64,000 nt of DNA from Actinomycetota bacterium (lineage in GTDB: Bacteria > Actinomycetota > Thermoleophilia > Solirubrobacterales > 70-9). The notes under the pieces were generated by a model. It was not told the origin of the DNA and searched no databases. It worked only from the letters and a program-made list of their open reading frames with translations. A program made the position numbers and the translations under genes. The stretch covers positions 62,001-126,000 of the forward strand of contig JAFDWO010000141.1 of the NCBI GenBank assembly GCA_018268415.1, given 5' to 3'. Positions 3,194 to 50,664 of the stretch are shown here, in pieces; the stretch's first letter is position 1; every line of letters begins with the position of its first letter.

Positions 3194-3201
3194 CCACCCC
3201 A

Positions 3202-3244
3202 GCGTTCGCACTCTGCCGTAACCGGTACGGCAAAGTGCGAACGC
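3202..3244. repeat. Hairpin a (GTTCGCACT...GTGCGAAC), copy A
   Basis: Two 19-nt arms (3202-3220, 3226-3244) with one mismatch and a 5-nt loop, starting 9 nt after the aldehyde dehydrogenase stop. No T-run follows. A related hairpin (CGTTCGCGCTTTACCGT arm) follows acnA at 49124-49165, so it may mark or end the 3' side of transcripts. Confidence 0.75.
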
Positions 3245-3464
3245 GGAGTGGAAGGGGAAGGGGCGCTGCCGACCGGCGCCGCGGAGGGATGGGCCTGGGG
3301 AAGCTGCCGCCCGGGAGGGACGGCGTCTCGGGAAGCTGTCGCCCGTGGGGAACGGGGCCCTTTCCCTCGGGCTGTCGCCCATGGGAAGGGCCCCGGCCCC
3401 TCGAGCTGTCGCCCATGGGAAGGGCCCCGGCCCCTCGAGCTGTCGCCCATGGCGGAAAGGGATG

Positions 3465-3516
3465 CGGCCGTCTCGTCCACGGCCCTGGCAGGCTGTGGCC
3501 GTGGCCGAGACGGCCG
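3465..3516. repeat. Hairpin c with loop CTGGCAGGCTGT, copy A
   Basis: Arms 3465-3484 and 3497-3516 (core GGCCGTCTCGTCCACGGCC) around a 12-nt loop. Including the closing pair, the loop reads CCTGGCAGGCTGTG, the exact reverse complement of the loop of the hairpin at 4135-4192. Other copies: 27572-27623 and 49479-49528. Confidence 0.8.
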
Positions 3517-3828
3517 AGGGTGCGGGGAGCGGGCGGAGAGAAGCACGGAAGGCCCCCGCGGGAGGATGCGGGCGAGCGTGAGGCGGATCCCCCACGGGGC
3601 TCCCACGGATCCCGCCGATCCCGGCGTCCGGGGCCGGAGGGTGTCACGGATCCCCCTGATCCCGGCCCCCGGGGGCCGGGAGGTGTGACGGATCCGTCAC
3701 GGAGGAGGGATCTGGTCACGGAGATGTCGGGAAGGTCGCGAGTGTGACGGGACCCTCACCGGACCGGGACCCCGTCACGGAGACGTAGGGAACTCCACGC
3801 CTCCTCCCGTGTTGTCCAACGCTCACGG

Positions 3829-3880
3829 ACGCCTTCCGTACTTTGACCATGCCATGGCAGGGTCAAAGTACGGAAGGCGT
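3829..3880. repeat. 52-bp palindrome e (core TTCCGTACTTTGACC), copy A
   Basis: Perfect 20-bp arms (3829-3848, 3861-3880) around ATGCCATGGCAG, itself nearly self-complementary. The outer stem differs from the copies at 27765 and 49921 on both arms at once (GCCTT/AAGGC here, GCGTT/AACGC there), which keeps the pairing. Confidence 0.85.
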
Positions 3881-4134
3881 TCCCGGGCCTTCTTTCCGGG
3901 CCCGGGGACGGACCGAAGGATCCGGAAAGCGTGACGTTCCCGGCGTCTTCGTGACCGATCGGGGCCAGGTGTGGCCTCTCCCGCACGGACCCGTCACGGA
4001 AGTCCGACCTCCTCCCGTCCCTGTGTCTCCCCTCATCCCTGTGTCGTCTTTTTCACGACCCCCTCCCATCCCTGTCCCGCCTTTTTCACGACCCCCTCCC
4101 GTCCCTATGTCGTCTTCCCCCGCGACCCCCTCCC

Positions 4135-4192
4135 GTCCCGGGCGCCTCATGGCGCTCACAGCCTGCCAGGAGCGCCATGAGGCGCCCGGGAC
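4135..4192. repeat. Hairpin g with loop CACAGCCTGCCAGG, copy A
   Basis: Perfect 22-bp arms (core GGGCGCCTCATGGCGCT) around the 14-nt loop CACAGCCTGCCAGG. The same arms and loop recur at 28004-28061 and, with slight change, at 50187-50244. Confidence 0.85.
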
Positions 4193-4300
4193 CATCTCGG
4201 ACGGGTGCGGGGGCCGGGGGCGGGCCCCCACGCACGCCCCGCGCCGCATCTCGGACGGGCGCCCGGGGCGGGGTCGTACCGTCCCGCCTCGACACCCCGC

Positions 4301-4353
4301 CCCCTCCGCTGTTCCTTATGCGCCTATGGGGCGCATAAGGAACAGCGGAGGGG
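4301..4353. repeat. Palindrome i (GCTGTTCCTTATG family), copy 1
   Basis: Perfect 24-bp arms (4301-4324, 4330-4353) and a 5-nt loop. The core GCTGTTCCTTATG is shared with copies at 13774 (inside ileS), 28452 and 39359. Outer stem pairs and the centre differ between copies while pairing is kept. Confidence 0.85.
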
Positions 4354-4442
4354 TCTCGGCGACGGCGGGGCGTCCGCGCCCATCCTCCGTCCGTCCGCCC
4401 ACCCGCGGCGGGCGCGCTGAGGCGCGCCCGCCTTGTCGCCGG

Positions 4443-5783
4443 CTAGCTCTCGTGGGGCCGCGCCATCGCGCGGTGGTCAAGGGCCTCATCCAGCGTCTCG
4501 GACGAGACGCCGTGCTCGAGCGCGACCTCGCGGAGGGGGCGGCCGGAGTCGGCGGCGTCCTTGACGATCGCGGCGGCGGCGTCGTAGCCGATGTGGGGGT
4601 TGAGGGCGGTAGCCGTGGCGAGCGTCGCCTCGGCGTGGCGCTCGGTCATCTCTTCGTTGGCCTCGAGGCCCGCGACGCACTTCTCGTTGAGCAGGCGCGA
4701 GGCGCTTGCGAGGAGCTTGATCGAGCCGAGTAGGTTGCGGGCGATCAGCGGCACCCGCACGTTCAGCTCGAACTGGCCCTGCATGCCGCCGATCGTGATC
4801 GCCGCGTCGTTGCCGATCACCTGGGCGGCGACCTGGATGACGACCTCGGGGATCACCGGGTTGACCTTGCCCGGCATGATCGAGGAGCCCTTCTGCAGCT
4901 CCGGCAGGCGCAGCTCGGCGAGCCCCGCCCGCGGGCCGGAGCCCATCAGCGCCAGGTCGTTGGCGATCTTGTTGAGCGAGACGGCGTAGACCTTGAGCGC
5001 GCCCGACAGCTCGACCAGCGCGTCACGATTGCCCTGCGCCTCGAAGGCGTCGAGGGGGCCGGAGATCTCGAGGCCGGTGTCGGTAGCGAGCTTCTCGCGC
5101 ACCTTGGCGGCGAACTCCGGGTGGGTGTTCAGGCCGGTGCCGGTGGCGGTGCCGCCGAGCGGGATCTGGCCGACCCGCCGCAGCGTTGCCTCGACCCGCT
5201 GCACGCCGAGGCGCACCTGCGCCGCGTAACCACCGAACTCCTGGCCGAGCGTCACCGGGACCGCGTCCATCAGGTGCGTGCGGCCCGCCTTGACGACGTC
5301 CTTGAACTCGCTCTCCTTGGCGGCTAGCGCGTCGGCGAGCGCGCCCATCGTGGGCAGCAGGTCGTGCGTCACCTCGTCCAGTGCCGCCAGGTGCACGGCG
5401 CTCGGGAAGACGTCGTTCGACGACTGGCCCATGTTCACGTGGTCGTTGGGGTGCGCCCCGTCACCGGCGAGGTTGGCGATCACCTCGTTGGCGTTCATGT
5501 TCGACGAGGTGCCCGAGCCGGTCTGGAAGACGTCGATCGGGAACTGGCCGTCGTGCTTGCCCTCGGCGACCGCGCTGCCGGCGGCGGCGATCCGCTCGGC
5601 GAGCTCGCCATCGAGCTTGCCCAAGGCGCCGTTCGCTTCCGCCGCGGCGGACTTGATCCGGCCCAGCCAGCGCACCACGGGAACCGGCACGCGCTCGCCG
5701 GAAACCGGGAAGTTGTCGACTGCTTTGGTGGTCTCGCCGCCCCAGAGCTGCTTGCCCGAGGTGGTCTCCGCGTCAACGCTCAA
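4443..5783 (-). CDS. fumC: Class II fumarate hydratase
   Basis: Interconverts fumarate and L-malate in the TCA cycle; cytosolic homotetramer in this family. At 446 aa it has normal class II length. It shows the active-site segments QTGSGTSSNMNANEVIAN, GRTHLMDAVPVTLGQE and the superfamily signature GSSIMPGKVNPV, which holds the catalytic serine loop. The start is taken as TTG 5783, because GGAGG lies 7 nt before it; longer readings to 5858 add a poorly structured His-rich stretch. The 3' end abuts composite repeat copy A. Confidence 0.95.
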   Translation of the reverse strand: MSVDAETTSGKQLWGGETTKAVDNFPVSGERVPVPVVRWLGRIKSAAAEANGALGKLDGELAERIAAAGSAVAEGKHDGQFPIDVFQTGSGTSSNMNANEVIANLAGDGAHPNDHVNMGQSSNDVFPSAVHLAALDEVTHDLLPTMGALADALAAKESEFKDVVKAGRTHLMDAVPVTLGQEFGGYAAQVRLGVQRVEATLRRVGQIPLGGTATGTGLNTHPEFAAKVREKLATDTGLEISGPLDAFEAQGNRDALVELSGALKVYAVSLNKIANDLALMGSGPRAGLAELRLPELQKGSSIMPGKVNPVIPEVVIQVAAQVIGNDAAITIGGMQGQFELNVRVPLIARNLLGSIKLLASASRLLNEKCVAGLEANEEMTERHAEATLATATALNPHIGYDAAAAIVKDAADSGRPLREVALEHGVSSETLDEALDHRAMARPHES

Positions 5784-10741: not shown

Positions 10742-10790
10742 GTTGATGGGCCGAAAACTCAAGCCCACCTGGAGTTTTCGGCCCGTCAAC
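10742..10790. repeat. Palindrome ii (GGGCCGAAAACTC family), copy 1
   Basis: Arms 10742-10760 and 10772-10790, 19 nt each with one G:T-type pair, and an 11-nt loop. It sits between convergent genes and its right arm covers the stop codon of the SDR gene. The second copy is inside the AGPS-like gene at 58323-58359. It could work as a bidirectional terminator here, though there is no T-run. Confidence 0.8.
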
Positions 10791-26652: not shown

Positions 26653-27471
26653 GTGGACGTCTTCGCCGCGGACTGGCCGGGAATCTGTCGCCGTATCGTG
26701 ATGGCGCAGCGCCGCATCTTCGCCGAGGTCGTGACCAGCGAGGAACGGACCGTCTACGAGGGGGTCGGCGAGGGCGGCGACCGCACGCTGGTGATCGACC
26801 GCCGCTGTGAGGACCAGGTCTTCGCCGAGCTGGAGAAGCTCGCCGCCGAAGGCGCCTCGTTCGTCGCCGTCTCCGAGGAGCGCGGTGAGGTCGTCTTCGG
26901 CGACGGCGGCCCGGTCCGGGTGGTGGTCGACCCGATCGACGGCTCGCTCAACGCGCGTCGCACGATTCCCTCCCACAGCCTCAGCATCGCCGTCGCCGAG
27001 GGAGACTCGATGGCCGATGTGCGCTTCGGCTTCGTCCACGACTTCGGCGCCGACGAGGAGTTCATGGCGATCCGTGGCGAGGGCGCCTCGGTGGGCGGCC
27101 GGGCGGCGCAGGTGGCCGTCGGCAACGGCCGCCTCGAGGTCGTCGGCCTCGAGTCGGCGGAGCCCGAATGGACCCTCCCCGCGATGCGCGCCCTGGCGGG
27201 CAACGCCTACCGGCTGCGGGTGGTCGGCTCGATCGCGATCACCGCCGCCTACGTCGCCGCCGGCCGCTTCGACGCCTTCCTCAGCCTGCGCCCGTGCCGC
27301 TCCGTCGACGCCGCCGCCGCCCAACTCATCGTCCGCGAGGCCGGCGGCGCGGTCTCCTTCGGCGACGGCGATCTCACCGCCGCCCCCCTCGCCCTCACCG
27401 CCCGCTACCCGATGGCGGCCGCCCGCGACGACAACGCCCTGGCCGCCGTCCGCGCCGCCCAGAGCGCGTAG
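26653..27471 (+). CDS. Inositol-monophosphatase family phosphatase
   Basis: Mg-dependent sugar/inositol phosphatase fold, 272 aa. The metal-binding signature is VVDPIDGSLNARR (family DPIDGTxN); SEERGEV near residue 75 supplies a Glu. The second signature is present as RSVDAAAAQLIVREAGG, where Ser replaces the usual Trp before the Asp. Substrate could be inositol phosphate, fructose bisphosphate or PAP; not decidable. The reading frame is open far upstream, antisense to the helicase gene, but the TAGAGT/GTG arrangement and the family's length fix the start. It is followed by composite repeat copy B. Confidence 0.85.
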   Translation: MDVFAADWPGICRRIVMAQRRIFAEVVTSEERTVYEGVGEGGDRTLVIDRRCEDQVFAELEKLAAEGASFVAVSEERGEVVFGDGGPVRVVVDPIDGSLNARRTIPSHSLSIAVAEGDSMADVRFGFVHDFGADEEFMAIRGEGASVGGRAAQVAVGNGRLEVVGLESAEPEWTLPAMRALAGNAYRLRVVGSIAITAAYVAAGRFDAFLSLRPCRSVDAAAAQLIVREAGGAVSFGDGDLTAAPLALTARYPMAAARDDNALAAVRAAQSA

Positions 27472-27571
27472 GCAGTGGGCTCCCGGGGCCACGCCTAGGT
27501 GTCCCCGGGGTGTCCCGGCCCCGGGAAGGGATGGGGCCCTCTCAAGCTGTCGCCCACAGCGACAAGGGATG

Positions 27572-27623
27572 CGGCCGTCTCGGCCACGGCCCCGGCAGGC
27601 TGTGGCCGTGGCCGAGACGGCCG
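27572..27623. repeat. Hairpin c, copy B
   Basis: Perfect 20-bp arms (CGGCCGTCTCGGCCACGGCC and partner) around CCGGCAGGCTGT. The stem is fully paired here, while copies A and C have T:G pairs at one place. Confidence 0.8.
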
Positions 27624-27764
27624 GGTATGAAAGCGGTGGAGGAAGGCCCACGGGAAACCCACGGGAGCACCACTGATCCCTCACGGGACCGTCACGGAGG
27701 AGGGACCCCGTCACGGAGACGTAGGGAACTCCACGCCTCCTCCCGTGTTGTCCAACGCTCACGG

Positions 27765-27816
27765 ACGCGTTCCGTACTTTGACCCTGCCATGGCAGGGTC
27801 AAAGTACGGAACGTGT
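27765..27816. repeat. 52-bp palindrome e, copy B
   Basis: Two 26-nt arms with no loop and one G:T-type pair near the end; centre CTGCCATGGCAG. Matches 3829-3880 and 49921-49972. Confidence 0.85.
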
Positions 27817-28003
27817 TCCCGGGCCCTCCTTCCAGGCCCGAAAAGAGACCGAAGGTTGCGGAAAGGGTGACGTTCCCGGCGTCTTCGTGACCGATCGGGG
27901 CGGGGTGTGGCCCCTCCCGCACGGACCCGTCACGGAAGTCCGACCCCCTCCCGTCCCTGTGTCTCCCCTCATCCCTGTGTCGTCTTTTTCACGACCCCCT
28001 CCC

Positions 28004-28061
28004 GTCCCGGGCGCCTCATGGCGCTCACAGCCTGCCAGGAGCGCCATGAGGCGCCCGGGAC
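28004..28061. repeat. Hairpin g, copy B
   Basis: Perfect 22-bp arms and the loop CACAGCCTGCCAGG, identical to copy A. Confidence 0.85.
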
Positions 28062-28420
28062 CATCTCGGACGGGTGGGGGCCGGGGTCGGGACGCACCTC
28101 GGACGGGCGCGGGGGCCGGGGTCGGGCGGCATCTCGAACGGGCGCACGGGCCGAGGTCGGGACGCATCTCGGACGGGTGCGGGGGTCGGGGTCGCGCCGC
28201 CACGCACCCCGGGACGCACCTCGGACGGGTGCGGGGGTCGGGGTCGGGCCGCCACGCACCCCGCGCCGCACCTCGGACGGGTGCGGGGGTCGGGGTCGGA
28301 CCGCAACGCTCACTCGCCCGCCATCTCGGACGGGAGGGAGGCCCGGGGTCGGCACGCATCTCGGACGGGCGGGGCGGCCTGGACCGCGCCGCACCTCGAA
28401 CCGCCGCACCGTCCAGGGTC
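28062..28420. repeat. Degenerate tandem repeats of CATCTCGGACGGGTGCGGGGG type
   Basis: About nine units of 30-45 bp built on C(A/G)(T/C)CTCGGACGGG followed by a G-rich run. Copy A has two units and copy C about five, so the number varies between sites. Spacing and sequence drift exclude a CRISPR array. Confidence 0.8.
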
Positions 28421-28451
28421 GGGCCCGTCCCTCTTCGACGGCCTGAGCCCT

Positions 28452-28496
28452 TCCGCTGTTCCTTATGGCGCCCAGGGCGCCATAAGGAACAGCGGA
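28452..28496. repeat. Palindrome i, copy 3
   Basis: Perfect 22-bp arms around a single A (28474); core GCTGTTCCTTATGG. It ends the repeat series of copy B. Confidence 0.88.
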
Positions 28497-28705
28497 GCGG
28501 TCCCGGGGACGGCGGGGGCCGGGGTCGCGCCGCCACGCGGCCCTGCAGCACAACTCGGACGGCCGTCTAGGCCGGCACCACGCCCTACCGTGGCCGGCCG
28601 CCTGGCCCACGAATCACATCCGTCCAGCCTCCGGACCCGCCGTCCCTCCACCCGCTCCGCGTCCCGGTTTTCACGCCTGTGTAACCAAAGGCGTACCGAT
28701 GTTTA

Positions 28706-39328: not shown

Positions 39329-39358
39329 GCGAGCTCCGCCACCTCCAAGGGGGGAGAA

Positions 39359-39415
39359 CCCCCGCCCGCTGTTCCTTATGGTCTTGTGGGGACCATAAGG
39401 AACAGCGGGCGGGGG
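39359..39415. repeat. Palindrome i, copy 4
   Basis: Left arm 39359-39383, loop TTGTGGG, right arm 39391-39415; core GCTGTTCCTTATGGTC. It lies 30 nt after pccB and reaches into the 5' end of the next reading frame. Confidence 0.9.
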
Positions 39416-39430
39416 TGGTCTTGGCGCGAG

Positions 39431-45116: not shown

Positions 45117-45124
45117 ACCGATAT

Positions 45125-45270
45125 CTCCTTCGTCGGCCTACGGGGTTAGCTGTCGGGCTGGCGCTGAAAGAGCCTGCGCCTCCACCACTGGTGGATTAGC
45201 CCCGAAAACGTGGTTCCCCCGTTCCCGCGTGCCAGATGGCATGCAGGACTCGGCGTTTCGGTCTTATTGA
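45125..45270 (-). promoter_or_regulatory. Cyclic di-AMP riboswitch (ydaO-yuaA class)
   Basis: On the minus strand the region reads ...GGGAACGGGGGAACCACG... then GGGGCTAATCC, CTCTTTCAGCGCCAGCCCGA and CAGCTAACCCCGTAGGC, directly before GAAGGAG of the NlpC/P60 gene. These are the conserved blocks of the ydaO class, in order and at normal spacing. Family knowledge: c-di-AMP binding switches the gene off. Ends are approximate. Confidence 0.88.
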
Positions 45271-49047: not shown

Positions 49048-49123
49048 CCCCCGCGGCCCGGCGGGCGGGAGGTCGACCGTATCGACCGTTCTCTCTTAAG
49101 CAGGGATGCGGCCGGGATCGCCC

Positions 49124-49165
49124 CGTTCGCGCTTTACCGTCACCGATACGGCAAAAGCGCGAACG
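49124..49165. repeat. Hairpin a, copy C
   Basis: Arms CGTTCGCGCTTTACCGT and ACGGCAAAAGCGCGAACG, imperfect; 77 nt after the acnA stop. Counterpart of 3202-3244. Confidence 0.7.
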
Positions 49166-49478
49166 CGGGGGATGGGGCTCGGGAAGCTGCCGCCCGGGGG
49201 AGGATGGGGTCCCTGAAGCCGGCGCCCGGGAAGGGATGGGGCCGTCTCGAGCTGTCGCCCGGGAAGGGATGGGGCTCCCGGGGCTGGCGCCCGAGGCCAA
49301 GGGATGAGCCCCCTGAAGCTGTCGCCCGGGGAAGGGACGGGCCCTTGCGAGCTCGCCCGGGAAGGCCCCCGGCCCCTCGAGCTGTCGCCCGTGGGGAAAG
49401 GCATGCGGCCCGAGAAGGCTGGCGCCCCGGGCAAGGGATGCGGCCCCCTCGAGCTGTCGCCCACGGCGGAAAGGGACG

Positions 49479-49528
49479 GGCCGTCTCGTCCACGGCCCTG
49501 GCAGGCTGTGGCCGTGGCCGAGACGGCC
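49479..49528. repeat. Hairpin c, copy C
   Basis: Arms GGCCGTCTCGTCCACGGCC and partner around CTGGCAGGCTGT, identical loop to copy A. Confidence 0.8.
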
Positions 49529-49920
49529 GGGGGTGCGGGAGCGGGCGGGGGAAGCACGGAAGGCCCCGGGCGGATGCGGGCGGATCCCTCACGCGAGCGA
49601 CACGGGGGTGCCACGGATCCGTGACGGGACCGTCACGGAAGGAGACCTCGTCACGAAGACGTCGCGAACGTCACCTTCCTCCCACCCTTCGCCATCACTC
49701 AAGGATCTCCGTGTTTGGTTTCGGTTGCTCAGCAACCAAAACTCGACGCGCGTCCCACGGACCCCCGATCCCGGCGTCCGGGGGCCGGAGGGTGCCACGG
49801 ATCCCCCCGATCCCGGCCCCCGGGGGCCGGGAGGTGTGACGGATCCCTCACCGGACCGGGACCCCGTCACGGAGACGTAGGGAACTCCACCCTTCCTCCC
49901 GTGTTGTCCAACGCTCACGG

Positions 49921-49972
49921 ACGCGTTCCGTACTTTGACCCTGCCATGGCATGGTCAAAGTACGGAACGCGT
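49921..49972. repeat. 52-bp palindrome e, copy C
   Basis: 26-nt arms with one mismatch near the centre (CTGCCATGGCAT); outer stem GCGTT/AACGC. Confidence 0.85.
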
Positions 49973-50186
49973 TCCCGGGCCCTCTTTCCGGGCCCGGGAA
50001 CGGACCGAAGGTTGCGGAAAGCGTGACGTTCCCGGCATCTTCGTCACAGATCGGGGCGGGGTGTGGCCTGGACCCGTCACGGAAGTCCGACCTCCCCCCG
50101 TTCCTGTATCCCCCCTCATCCCTGTGTCGTCTTTTTCACGACCCCCTCCCATCCCTGTCCCGTCTTTTTCACGACCCCCTCCCGTC

Positions 50187-50244
50187 GTCCCGGGCGCCTC
50201 ATGGCGATCACAGCCTGCCAGGAGCGCCATGAGGCGCCCGGGAC
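50187..50244. repeat. Hairpin g, copy C
   Basis: 21-bp arms (GGGCGCCTCATGGCG core). The loop again contains CACAGCCTGCCAGG; one inner base pair is lost relative to copies A and B. Confidence 0.8.
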
Positions 50245-50664
50245 GCAGCTCGGACGGGCGCGGGGGGTCGGGGTCGGGGGGCAGCTCGGACGGGTGGGGT
50301 GGCCGGGGTCGGGCGGCCACGCGCCCCGCACCGCATCTCGGACGGGCCCAGGGGCCGGGGTCGCGCCACGACACGGTCCGGGTCGCATCTCGGACGGGTG
50401 GGAGACCCGAGATCGCGCCGCACATCGACGGGCGCTCCGGCCGCGTCAATCACCCGGTGCCCAGTGACGGTTCTCTCCGCCGGGTGGGAGGGGAGATGCA
50501 GGAGGGGCGCGGGAGGCAGGGGGGTCCGCGCGCCCCTCGCTGCACCTGCGCGCCGGTAGCCAGGGAGGGATGCCGACGCGGCCATTCTGGGGCGGCGCCC
50601 CAGAACAGTCCGGACTAGCTATACCGCCAGTTCAGGCTTCGGTCAAGGTCGATATACCGAACCG

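What the first reader, a model, noticed from the sequence alone, without database searches (positions are those of the whole stretch)
3194..4442. A 1.2-1.6 kb composite palindrome element in three copies, with fixed part order
Copies at 3194-4442, 27472-28660 and 49048-50664 share the same ordered parts: GCTGTCGCCC tandem units, hairpin c, a core of about 300 bp, a 52-bp palindrome, TTTTTCACGACCCCC units, hairpin g and CTCGGACGGG units. No coding gene or transposase is in them. Two copies sit between convergent genes. I know of no described element with this layout; it could be a BIME-like mosaic, a nucleoid- or gyrase-binding region, or a long structured RNA.
Basis: seen in the sequence. Interest (0 to 1): 0.85.

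Follow-up and report, generated by a model that had tools for sequence, protein, structure and literature searches.

The report
Hairpin-ended repeats between converging genes
This bacterium carries well over a hundred copies of a large non-coding DNA element that ends in two mirrored hairpins and mostly sits where two genes run into each other; it behaves like a mobile repeat, but the two kinds of moving enzyme looked for were not found in its genome.

Summary
The three copies share the stated part order and belong to a family of about 185 in this 4.74 Mb draft genome (185 g-hairpin and 180 c-hairpin matches, controls 0). Six of 12 genus genomes have both hairpins; a seventh has weak core matches only; five small-genome species have none.

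c and g are inverted versions of one hairpin: 20-24 bp stems that covary (12 of 24 g pairs changed on both sides) around a near-invariant 12-nt loop. A fast-changing palindrome (e) and short repeats lie between. Of 30 own copies with both neighbours called, 23 sit between convergent and 0 between divergent genes.

Collinear relatives show empty sites: copy 2 is a 1.2 kb insertion absent from G040 and G033; G040 has a copy where this genome has 5 bp. At the one shared site compared, copies resemble their own genome's family more than each other.

Best reading: a non-autonomous, REPIN/BIME-like insertion family with far longer hairpins, lacking the Y1/RAYT transposase (0 of 12 genomes). The mobilising enzyme is unknown; host roles are untested; a single structured RNA is not supported.

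The parts
3195..4436 (+). Copy 1 of the composite element, between convergent aldehyde dehydrogenase (+, ends 3193) and fumarase C (-, 4443-5783) genes
   Evidence: alignment with G040 stops at 3194 and resumes at 4437, where G040 has its own diverged copy
3202..3244 (+). hairpin a (19-bp arms, 5-nt loop)
3283..3452 (+). tandem units with AGCTGTCGCCC, expanded outer flank of hairpin c
   Evidence: mostly a single unit in relatives
3465..3516 (+). hairpin c (20-bp arms, loop CTGGCAGGCTGT; ACAGCCTGCCAG on - strand)
3829..3880 (+). palindrome e (26-bp arms, no loop)
4034..4139 (+). 33-bp units with TTTTTCACGACCCCC
4134..4193 (+). hairpin g (23-24 bp arms, loop ACAGCCTGCCAG)
   Evidence: 88.0 bits
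4196..4260 (+). CTCGGACGGG units, outer flank of hairpin g
4301..4353 (+). hairpin i (TGTTCCTTATG family)
27463..28678 (+). Copy 2, after an inositol monophosphatase gene (+, ends 27471); absent from the collinear site in G040 (about 6 bp) and G033 (about 34 bp)
27572..27623 (+). hairpin c of copy 2
27765..27816 (+). palindrome e of copy 2
28003..28062 (+). hairpin g of copy 2
28056..28352 (+). expanded 35/52-bp CTCGGACGGG array of copy 2
28452..28496 (+). hairpin i of copy 2
49048..50488 (+). Copy 3, between convergent genes (aconitase on + ends 49047); right boundary between about 50488 and 50501
49170..49462 (+). GCTGTCGCCC array of copy 3 (about 8-9 units)
49479..49528 (+). hairpin c of copy 3
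49921..49972 (+). palindrome e of copy 3
50110..50183 (+). TTTTTCACGACCCCC units of copy 3
50186..50245 (+). hairpin g of copy 3
   Evidence: 88.2 bits
50245..50402 (+). CTCGGACGGG units of copy 3
10742..10790 (.). solo palindrome j (GTTGATGGGCCGAAAACTC), at a convergent junction; a separate palindrome family of the same clade
39358..39416 (.). solo palindrome i outside any composite element

Best explanation
It is a non-coding, non-autonomous insertion element, REPIN/BIME-like in its logic: two hairpins of one type (c and g) in inverted orientation, enclosing a variable palindrome (e) and linkers. Whole copies insert at gene 3' ends, above all between convergent genes, have spread to about 185 copies, and stay more similar within a genome than between genomes. 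SHOWN: copy number and order; filled and empty sites in collinear relatives; convergent bias; stem covariation around a near-invariant loop; higher within-genome identity of c and g than of linkers; outer flanks that are mostly single units in relatives but tandem arrays here. INFERRED: c and g are the ends recognised, as folded single strands with the loop ACAGCCNGCC(A/C)G exposed, by an unidentified enzyme acting in trans; insertions elsewhere are lost by selection or avoided by targeting; gene conversion between copies, or turnover by re-insertion, keeps copies alike. The elements may secondarily act as gene-end boundaries.
For: 185 g and 180 c hairpin matches in the genome, controls 0. c and g hairpins in 6 of 12 genus genomes, 0 of 38 genomes of other genera in the family. 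Empty/filled sites in a collinear region: copy 2 absent in G040 and G033; G040 element of about 0.5 kb (with g, no c seen by eye) in a junction that is 5 bp here and about 4 bp in G033; site 3 is 155-177 bp without an element in G033, G034, G036, G041. One junction filled in opposite orientation in G000 (L016) and G040 (L195), as independent insertions could be. Convergent 23 of 30 own elements against 10 of 46 window junctions, Fisher P 4e-6; divergent 0 of 30. g stem: 12 of 24 pairs with both-sided changes, 47 cells, 0 of 500 shuffles. In 35 own copies identity is 0.94-0.99 in c and g, 0.79 in linkers, 0.83 in e. At site 1 the G000 and G040 linkers are 0.75 identical, within the 0.71-0.79 of other cross-species pairs, against 0.89-0.94 among four G000 and 0.78-0.89 among four G040 copies.
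Against: No enzyme found: Y1_Tnp (PF01797) in 0 of 12 genus genomes; reverse transcriptase not in own genome, in 2 of 12 genus genomes, one a carrier and one not; no gene called in 41 elements. Other transposase and recombinase families were not searched. No clear target duplication or terminal repeat at the two cleanest sites. Paired changes in palindrome arms can also come from template switching between arms, without any recognition. Site 1 is filled in the same orientation in G000 and G040, which old vertical inheritance would also give.
Confidence: 0.55

Rival explanations
1. A host-serving gene-end boundary: the hairpins stop or process read-through transcripts from both converging genes (bidirectional terminator, insulator or 3'-end stabiliser), and selection for this role keeps loops and stems.
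For: Convergent placement and scarcity at divergent sites; the layout is symmetrical, so a transcript from either side meets the same hairpin order; loops and stems conserved while linkers diverge.
Against: 8 of the window's 10 convergent junctions lack it, and two of those show, by eye, ordinary short terminators with T-runs; five sister species do without it; occupancy of orthologous junctions differs between species. REPs, often held to be mobile, show similar placement (PMC3733652, passages).
Confidence: 0.25
2. A chromosome-topology site (gyrase, condensin or nucleoid-protein binding, as proposed for E. coli BIMEs), spaced along the chromosome.
For: Convergent genes collect positive supercoils (general knowledge); no two listed copies closer than 4.8 kb among 47 intervals, fewer short gaps and more 19-26.5 kb gaps than random; GTCACGGA-like boxes seen by eye in the linkers of G000, G040 and G042 copies.
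Confidence: 0.1
3. A long structured non-coding RNA whose c and g hairpins kiss through their complementary 12-nt loops.
For: Loops CTGGCAGGCTGT and ACAGCCTGCCAG are exact complements in many copies, and stems covary.
Against: Complementarity follows from c and g being inverted copies; loop variants are not compensated within a copy (L107, L110, L114, L039, L141); c wobbles lie on the - strand (24 cells against 2, 12 stem positions against 2; g 25 against 12, 11 positions against 10); no orientation bias at tandem sites; no Rfam match there.
Confidence: 0.05
4. Decayed remains of a known IS, integron array or prophage.
For: High copy number, hairpins at both ends.
Against: No gene called in 41 copies; no Y1 transposase in the genus; the six viral contigs with the loop 16-mer score only 15-19 bits with the hairpin model. 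No IS, integron or prophage library was searched.
Confidence: 0.05

Closest known systems
REPINs / REP doublets with RAYT transposases (PMC8049555, PMC3733652, passages read)
   Same: Two inverted palindromic units around a diverse spacer, many intergenic copies, gene 3' ends and convergent junctions favoured, non-coding.
   Different: Stems 20-24 bp against 5-13 (GTAG) or 8-9 bp (CGTC); 12-nt loop; 238-842 bp between loops in the pairs measured; extra palindromes and arrays; no Y1/RAYT gene in 12 genus genomes.
BIMEs of E. coli (bacterial interspersed mosaic elements; mostly recalled)
   Same: Mosaic of palindromes in alternating orientation with linkers, extragenic.
   Different: Copies of 1.2-1.4 kb in the window with three to five long hairpins; gyrase/IHF binding not tested.
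MITEs (ERIC, Correia, RUP and the like; recalled)
   Same: Non-coding insertion elements without their own transposase, filled and empty sites between relatives.
   Different: No clear target duplication or ordinary terminal inverted repeat found; the mirrored hairpins share loop and part of the stem only.
CGTC-tagged REPs (PMC3733652, passages)
   Same: No dedicated transposase known; most g hairpins here begin with CGTC.
   Different: CGTC REPs have 8-9 bp stems, 4-5 nt loops and a CCA-like tail; hairpin c does not start with CGTC.

Membership tests
REP / BIME / REPIN | many intergenic palindromic copies in one genome | tested here: met
   185 g and 180 c hairpin matches, controls 0
REP / BIME / REPIN | short stem (5-13 bp) with a GTAG tag, or 8-9 bp with a CGTC tag, at one end | tested here: not met
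   stems 20-24 bp, loop 12 nt; GTAG or CTAC near an end in 1 of 95 distinct hairpins; most g start with CGTC but with a stem more than twice as long, c do not; definition from PMC3733652
REP / BIME / REPIN | inverted pairs of units | tested here: met
   c and g carry the same loop on opposite strands
REP / BIME / REPIN | placed between convergent or unidirectional genes, rarely divergent | tested here: met
   29 convergent, 15 tandem, 1 divergent of 45 with both flanks called, out of 51 elements
REP / BIME / REPIN | RAYT (Y1, IS200/IS605-type) transposase in the genome or lineage | tested here: not met
   PF01797: 0 of 12 genus genomes, rings in 5 of 14 controls; drafts 78-100% complete. CGTC REPs are also reported without a dedicated transposase
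REP / BIME / REPIN | binding of gyrase, IHF or Pol I (BIMEs, recalled) | not testable with these tools
   needs ChIP or binding assays
MITE | filled and empty sites at orthologous places | tested here: met
   copy 2, the G040 site at window 23608/23614, site 3
MITE | target-site duplication and terminal inverted repeats | tested here: inconclusive
   none clear at two clean sites; a CGTCCCTT motif on outer flanks of both ends in some relatives
MITE | parent transposase with the same ends | tested here: inconclusive
   no gene called in 41 elements, which were limited to c-g distances under 1.3 kb; no longer c-g pair up to 6 kb among 45 pairs in capped listings; most copies not read
Structured non-coding RNA | covarying stems | tested here: met
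   also expected of DNA hairpins
Structured non-coding RNA | one consistent sense strand | tested here: inconclusive
   c wobbles on the - strand, g slightly on the + strand; no transcription data
Known Rfam family | match at gathering score | tested here: not met
   one match in the window, a c-di-AMP riboswitch elsewhere

The most novel reading that the evidence does not exclude
A new class of hairpin-ended mobile DNA in bacteria: an element of roughly 0.4-1.4 kb whose two inverted ends are recognised by loop sequence (ACAGCCNGCC) and stem shape, with stem letters able to drift, moved by an enzyme unrelated to the Y1/RAYT system, and part of a wider invasion of this clade's gene-end junctions by long palindromes (families c/g, e, i, j) that goes with larger genomes (3.8-4.7 Mb against 2.4-2.9 Mb in sister species).
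Probability: 0.35. Interest if true: 0.8.

Novelty: new variant of a known kind. Interest (0 to 1): 0.64.

Why it matters
If right, REPIN-like sequence populations arose a second time in a lineage without the transposase known for REPINs, as much larger elements (REPIN size recalled) whose hairpins evolve by compensation. That gives a natural test of what such elements need (loop, stem, enzyme) and why gene-end junctions are their refuge. It also bears on the quality of these draft genomes: 32 of the 100 g hairpins listed lie within 1 kb of a contig's start (counted by hand), so repeats of this kind break assemblies and may join wrong contigs.

Tried and rejected
Kissing-loop RNA: the complementary loops of c and g looked decisive, but variants at loop positions 2 and 6 are not compensated within copies. 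RAYT/IS200 origin: no Y1_Tnp in 12 genus genomes. Retroelement: no RVT_1 in own genome. Phage carriage: six viral contigs share the 16-mer, model scores 15-19 bits. CTAG stop-codon target: TAG in 45 of 67 neighbouring genes against 21 of 46 in the window, too little to build on, dropped. A GTGGAATCAACCATCTAGG end motif: 12 scattered matches. Ordinary terminators: c, e and g show no T-run and longer arms than the window's terminators (by eye). Regular spacing: suggestive only.

Results against the reading, told here too: two hairpin-model hits outside the genus (G354, G336; E 9e-4 and 6e-4 in 399 genomes), taken as near chance but not examined further. The g-loop pattern rang in only 4 of 12 genus genomes, because G037 and G042 have other loop or stem letters; their hairpins were found by DNA similarity. 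The wobble count had four G037 g hairpins misfiled as c; one search repeats it with these moved (one shifted hairpin dropped). The wobble asymmetry of c (12 positions against 2) is not seen in g by positions (11 against 10).

Full report
WHAT WAS CHECKED. The three regions were read in full and scanned for tandem and inverted repeats. Hairpin c has 20-bp arms and a 12-nt loop, palindrome e is 52 bp with no loop, hairpin g has 23-24 bp arms and a 12-nt loop. Of 16 hairpins scoring 14 or more in the window, 14 are intergenic and 12 of these belong to the three copies; the other two are solo palindromes at 10742-10790 and 39358-39416. A codon-usage gene finder calls no gene inside 41 elements of G000 and five relatives. 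These were picked with c and g under 1.3 kb apart; in the capped own listings, 45 c hairpins have a g on the same strand 303-842 bp downstream, none has its first g between 842 bp and 6 kb, and 21 have no listed g, many of these at contig ends.

COPY NUMBER. The window is G000:C46:62001-126000 of a draft of 4,743,377 bases in 160 contigs. A g-hairpin pattern has 185 matches (105 forward, 80 reverse; control 0), a c-hairpin pattern 180 (96 and 84; control 0). Listings stop at about 100 places, so statements on all copies rest on the counts alone. 32 of the 100 listed g places lie within 1 kb of a contig's start (by hand).

DISTRIBUTION. In 50 genomes of the family, 7 match the element DNA, all in the window's genus (10 candidates scored per genome). 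Six of these (G000, G032, G037, G038, G040, G042; 3.8-4.7 Mb) have c and g hairpins; G039 (3.4 Mb) has two weak core matches. The five other genus members (G033-G036, G041; 2.4-2.9 Mb) have none. A g-loop pattern rang in 4 of the 12, missing G037 and G042, whose loops or stems differ. A covariance model of hairpin g, run with strict filters, found 6 of 399 genomes of the class: four of this genus and two marginal single hits; G032 and G042 do not appear among the genomes listed there, so it is a sample, not a census. A named record with closely similar g and e hairpins to G040's is an Actinomycetota MAG, JAFDWB010000063.1.

ANATOMY. Read on the strand where its loop is ACAGCCNGCC(A/C)G, hairpin g lies on the element's + strand and hairpin c on its - strand: c and g are inverted versions of one hairpin. 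I aligned 28 distinct g hairpins from seven sources, chosen by hand from those; the two of G037 have one more base pair and are partly out of register. 12 of 24 pairs show changes on both sides, in 47 cells; 0 of 500 shuffles reach these or the covariation score, 31 of 500 reach the number of pair types, and no slid version comes near. In 35 own copies, mean pairwise identity is 0.95-0.98 in the c and g arms, 0.94 and 0.99 in their loops, 0.79 in linkers and 0.83 in e; more than half of these copies came from a search with copy 1's core, which favours similar cores. Central palindromes differ in sequence between and within genomes: 44 of 51 elements have at least one above threshold, 56 in all, with 40 of 1245 arm positions mismatched (they were selected for pairing, so the low mismatch is partly by construction). 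Two more palindrome families share the clade: j (51 places in own genome, 0 in the five small-genome species and G039) and i (96 in own genome, 80 in G037, 52 in G040, 14 in G039, 2 in G035).

SITES. Genes were called with a simple codon-usage finder trained on the window; it misread the inositol monophosphatase gene left of copy 2, which is not among the elements counted below. Of 51 elements, 45 have both flanks called: 29 convergent, 8 and 7 tandem, 1 divergent. In own genome the figures are 23 convergent, 7 tandem and 0 divergent of 30. The window's 46 gene junctions, elements included, are 10 convergent, 25 tandem and 11 divergent. Fisher P is 4e-6 for the convergent excess in own genome and 0.003 for the divergent deficit. 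The tandem orientations (7 against 8) show no preference.

EMPTY SITES. The window is collinear with G040:C82 and G033:C30. Copy 2 is missing from both: the alignment to G040 stops at window 27462 and resumes at 28679 with about 6 bp between, and in G033 with about 34 bp (resuming at 28701). The insertion displaced the last codons of the upstream gene, whose old stop context (GTGTAACC) survives at the right edge. Conversely G040 has an element of about 0.5 kb, with g but no c hairpin seen, at the junction 23608/23614, which is 5 bp here and about 4 bp in G033 by eye. At site 3 the element-free species have 155-177 bp from stop to stop. The outgroup being empty, gain by insertion is the simplest reading. 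No target duplication was clear at either clean site.

SHARED JUNCTIONS. Among the fetched loci, a minority of all copies, four junctions carry an element in G000 and a relative: site 1 (both flanks, G040, same orientation), L016/L195 (both flanks, G040, opposite orientation), L024/L202 (one flank, G040, same) and L182/L077 (one flank, G038, same). The opposite case means independent insertion at one junction or inversion between c and g. At site 1, the only shared site whose linkers were compared, G000 and G040 linkers are 0.75 identical, within the 0.71-0.79 of the other pairs among four G000 and four G040 copies, although the flanking genes are 87-91% identical; the four G000 copies are 0.89-0.94 alike. 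Global alignment of such G+C-rich sequence has a high floor. Copies are therefore homogenised within a genome or replaced over time.

MECHANISM. The facts fit a non-autonomous insertion family kept at gene ends by targeting or by selection, like REPINs. Near-invariant loop, drifting but paired stems and inverted ends point to recognition of folded single strands; this is inference. Y1 transposases, the enzymes known for REPINs, are absent from all 12 genus genomes as far as the drafts go; RVT_1 occurs in G035 and G037 only. Other recombinases were not searched. Template switching between arms could produce paired changes without recognition, so covariation alone does not prove a binding partner.

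SPACING. Of 47 intervals between neighbouring copies on the listed contigs the shortest is 4,843 bp; random placement gives 4 to 8 below 4.8 kb, and 12 fall between 19 and 26.5 kb against about 6. Thresholds were chosen after seeing the data; the coefficient of variation has P 0.06 or 0.006 depending on the null. I keep it as a lead.

LITERATURE. Searches listed no description of this element in the open library; closed-access papers are not covered. Definitions of GTAG and CGTC REPs come from passages of PMC3733652, of REPINs from passages of PMC8049555; RepRanger (PMC12306157) was seen in passages only. MITE names, BIME protein binding, REPIN size and the 6C RNA likeness are recalled.

VERDICT. 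The element is real, abundant, mobile on an evolutionary scale and, in the genomes sampled, confined to one clade. It works like REPIN/BIME repeats but fails two of their tested defining features, so it is filed as a new variant of interspersed palindromic elements, not as a member.

Noticed in passing
window 50489-50620, - strand: A conserved small-RNA-like gene present in carriers and non-carriers alike: promoter-like TTGACC/TATAGC, then two hairpins with C-rich loops, reminiscent of 6C RNA (recalled). Rfam at E up to 5 gave only a chance miRNA match.
   Followed up: partly
window 10742-10790; pattern counts: Solo palindrome family j (TTGATGGGCCGAAAAC...GTTTTCGGCCCATCAA), 51 places in own genome, 33 in G040, 16 in G042, none in the five small-genome species.
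   Followed up: partly
window 39358-39416; pattern counts: Palindrome family i with fixed outer arms (TGTTCCTTNTG) and varying, mostly paired inner arms; 96 places in own genome, 80 in G037, 52 in G040, 14 in G039.
   Followed up: partly
L157 and L202 (G040 C82 and C63): The two flanks of window site 3 lie in different contigs of G040, each beside an element copy: recombination between copies or a misassembly at the repeat.
   Followed up: partly
L016 against L195: Same gene junction filled by an element in opposite orientation in G000 and G040: independent insertion, or inversion between the c and g hairpins.
   Followed up: partly
genus g1: Carriers have 3.8-4.7 Mb genomes, non-carriers 2.4-2.9 Mb (G039, with weak matches, 3.4 Mb); the link with genome size was not tested.
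   Followed up: no
window 45120-45265, - strand: c-di-AMP riboswitch (RF00379, 73.1 bits).
   Followed up: no
L158 and L159, junction at window site 3: In G038 and G042 this junction holds, by eye, a different and shorter inverted-repeat element.
   Followed up: no
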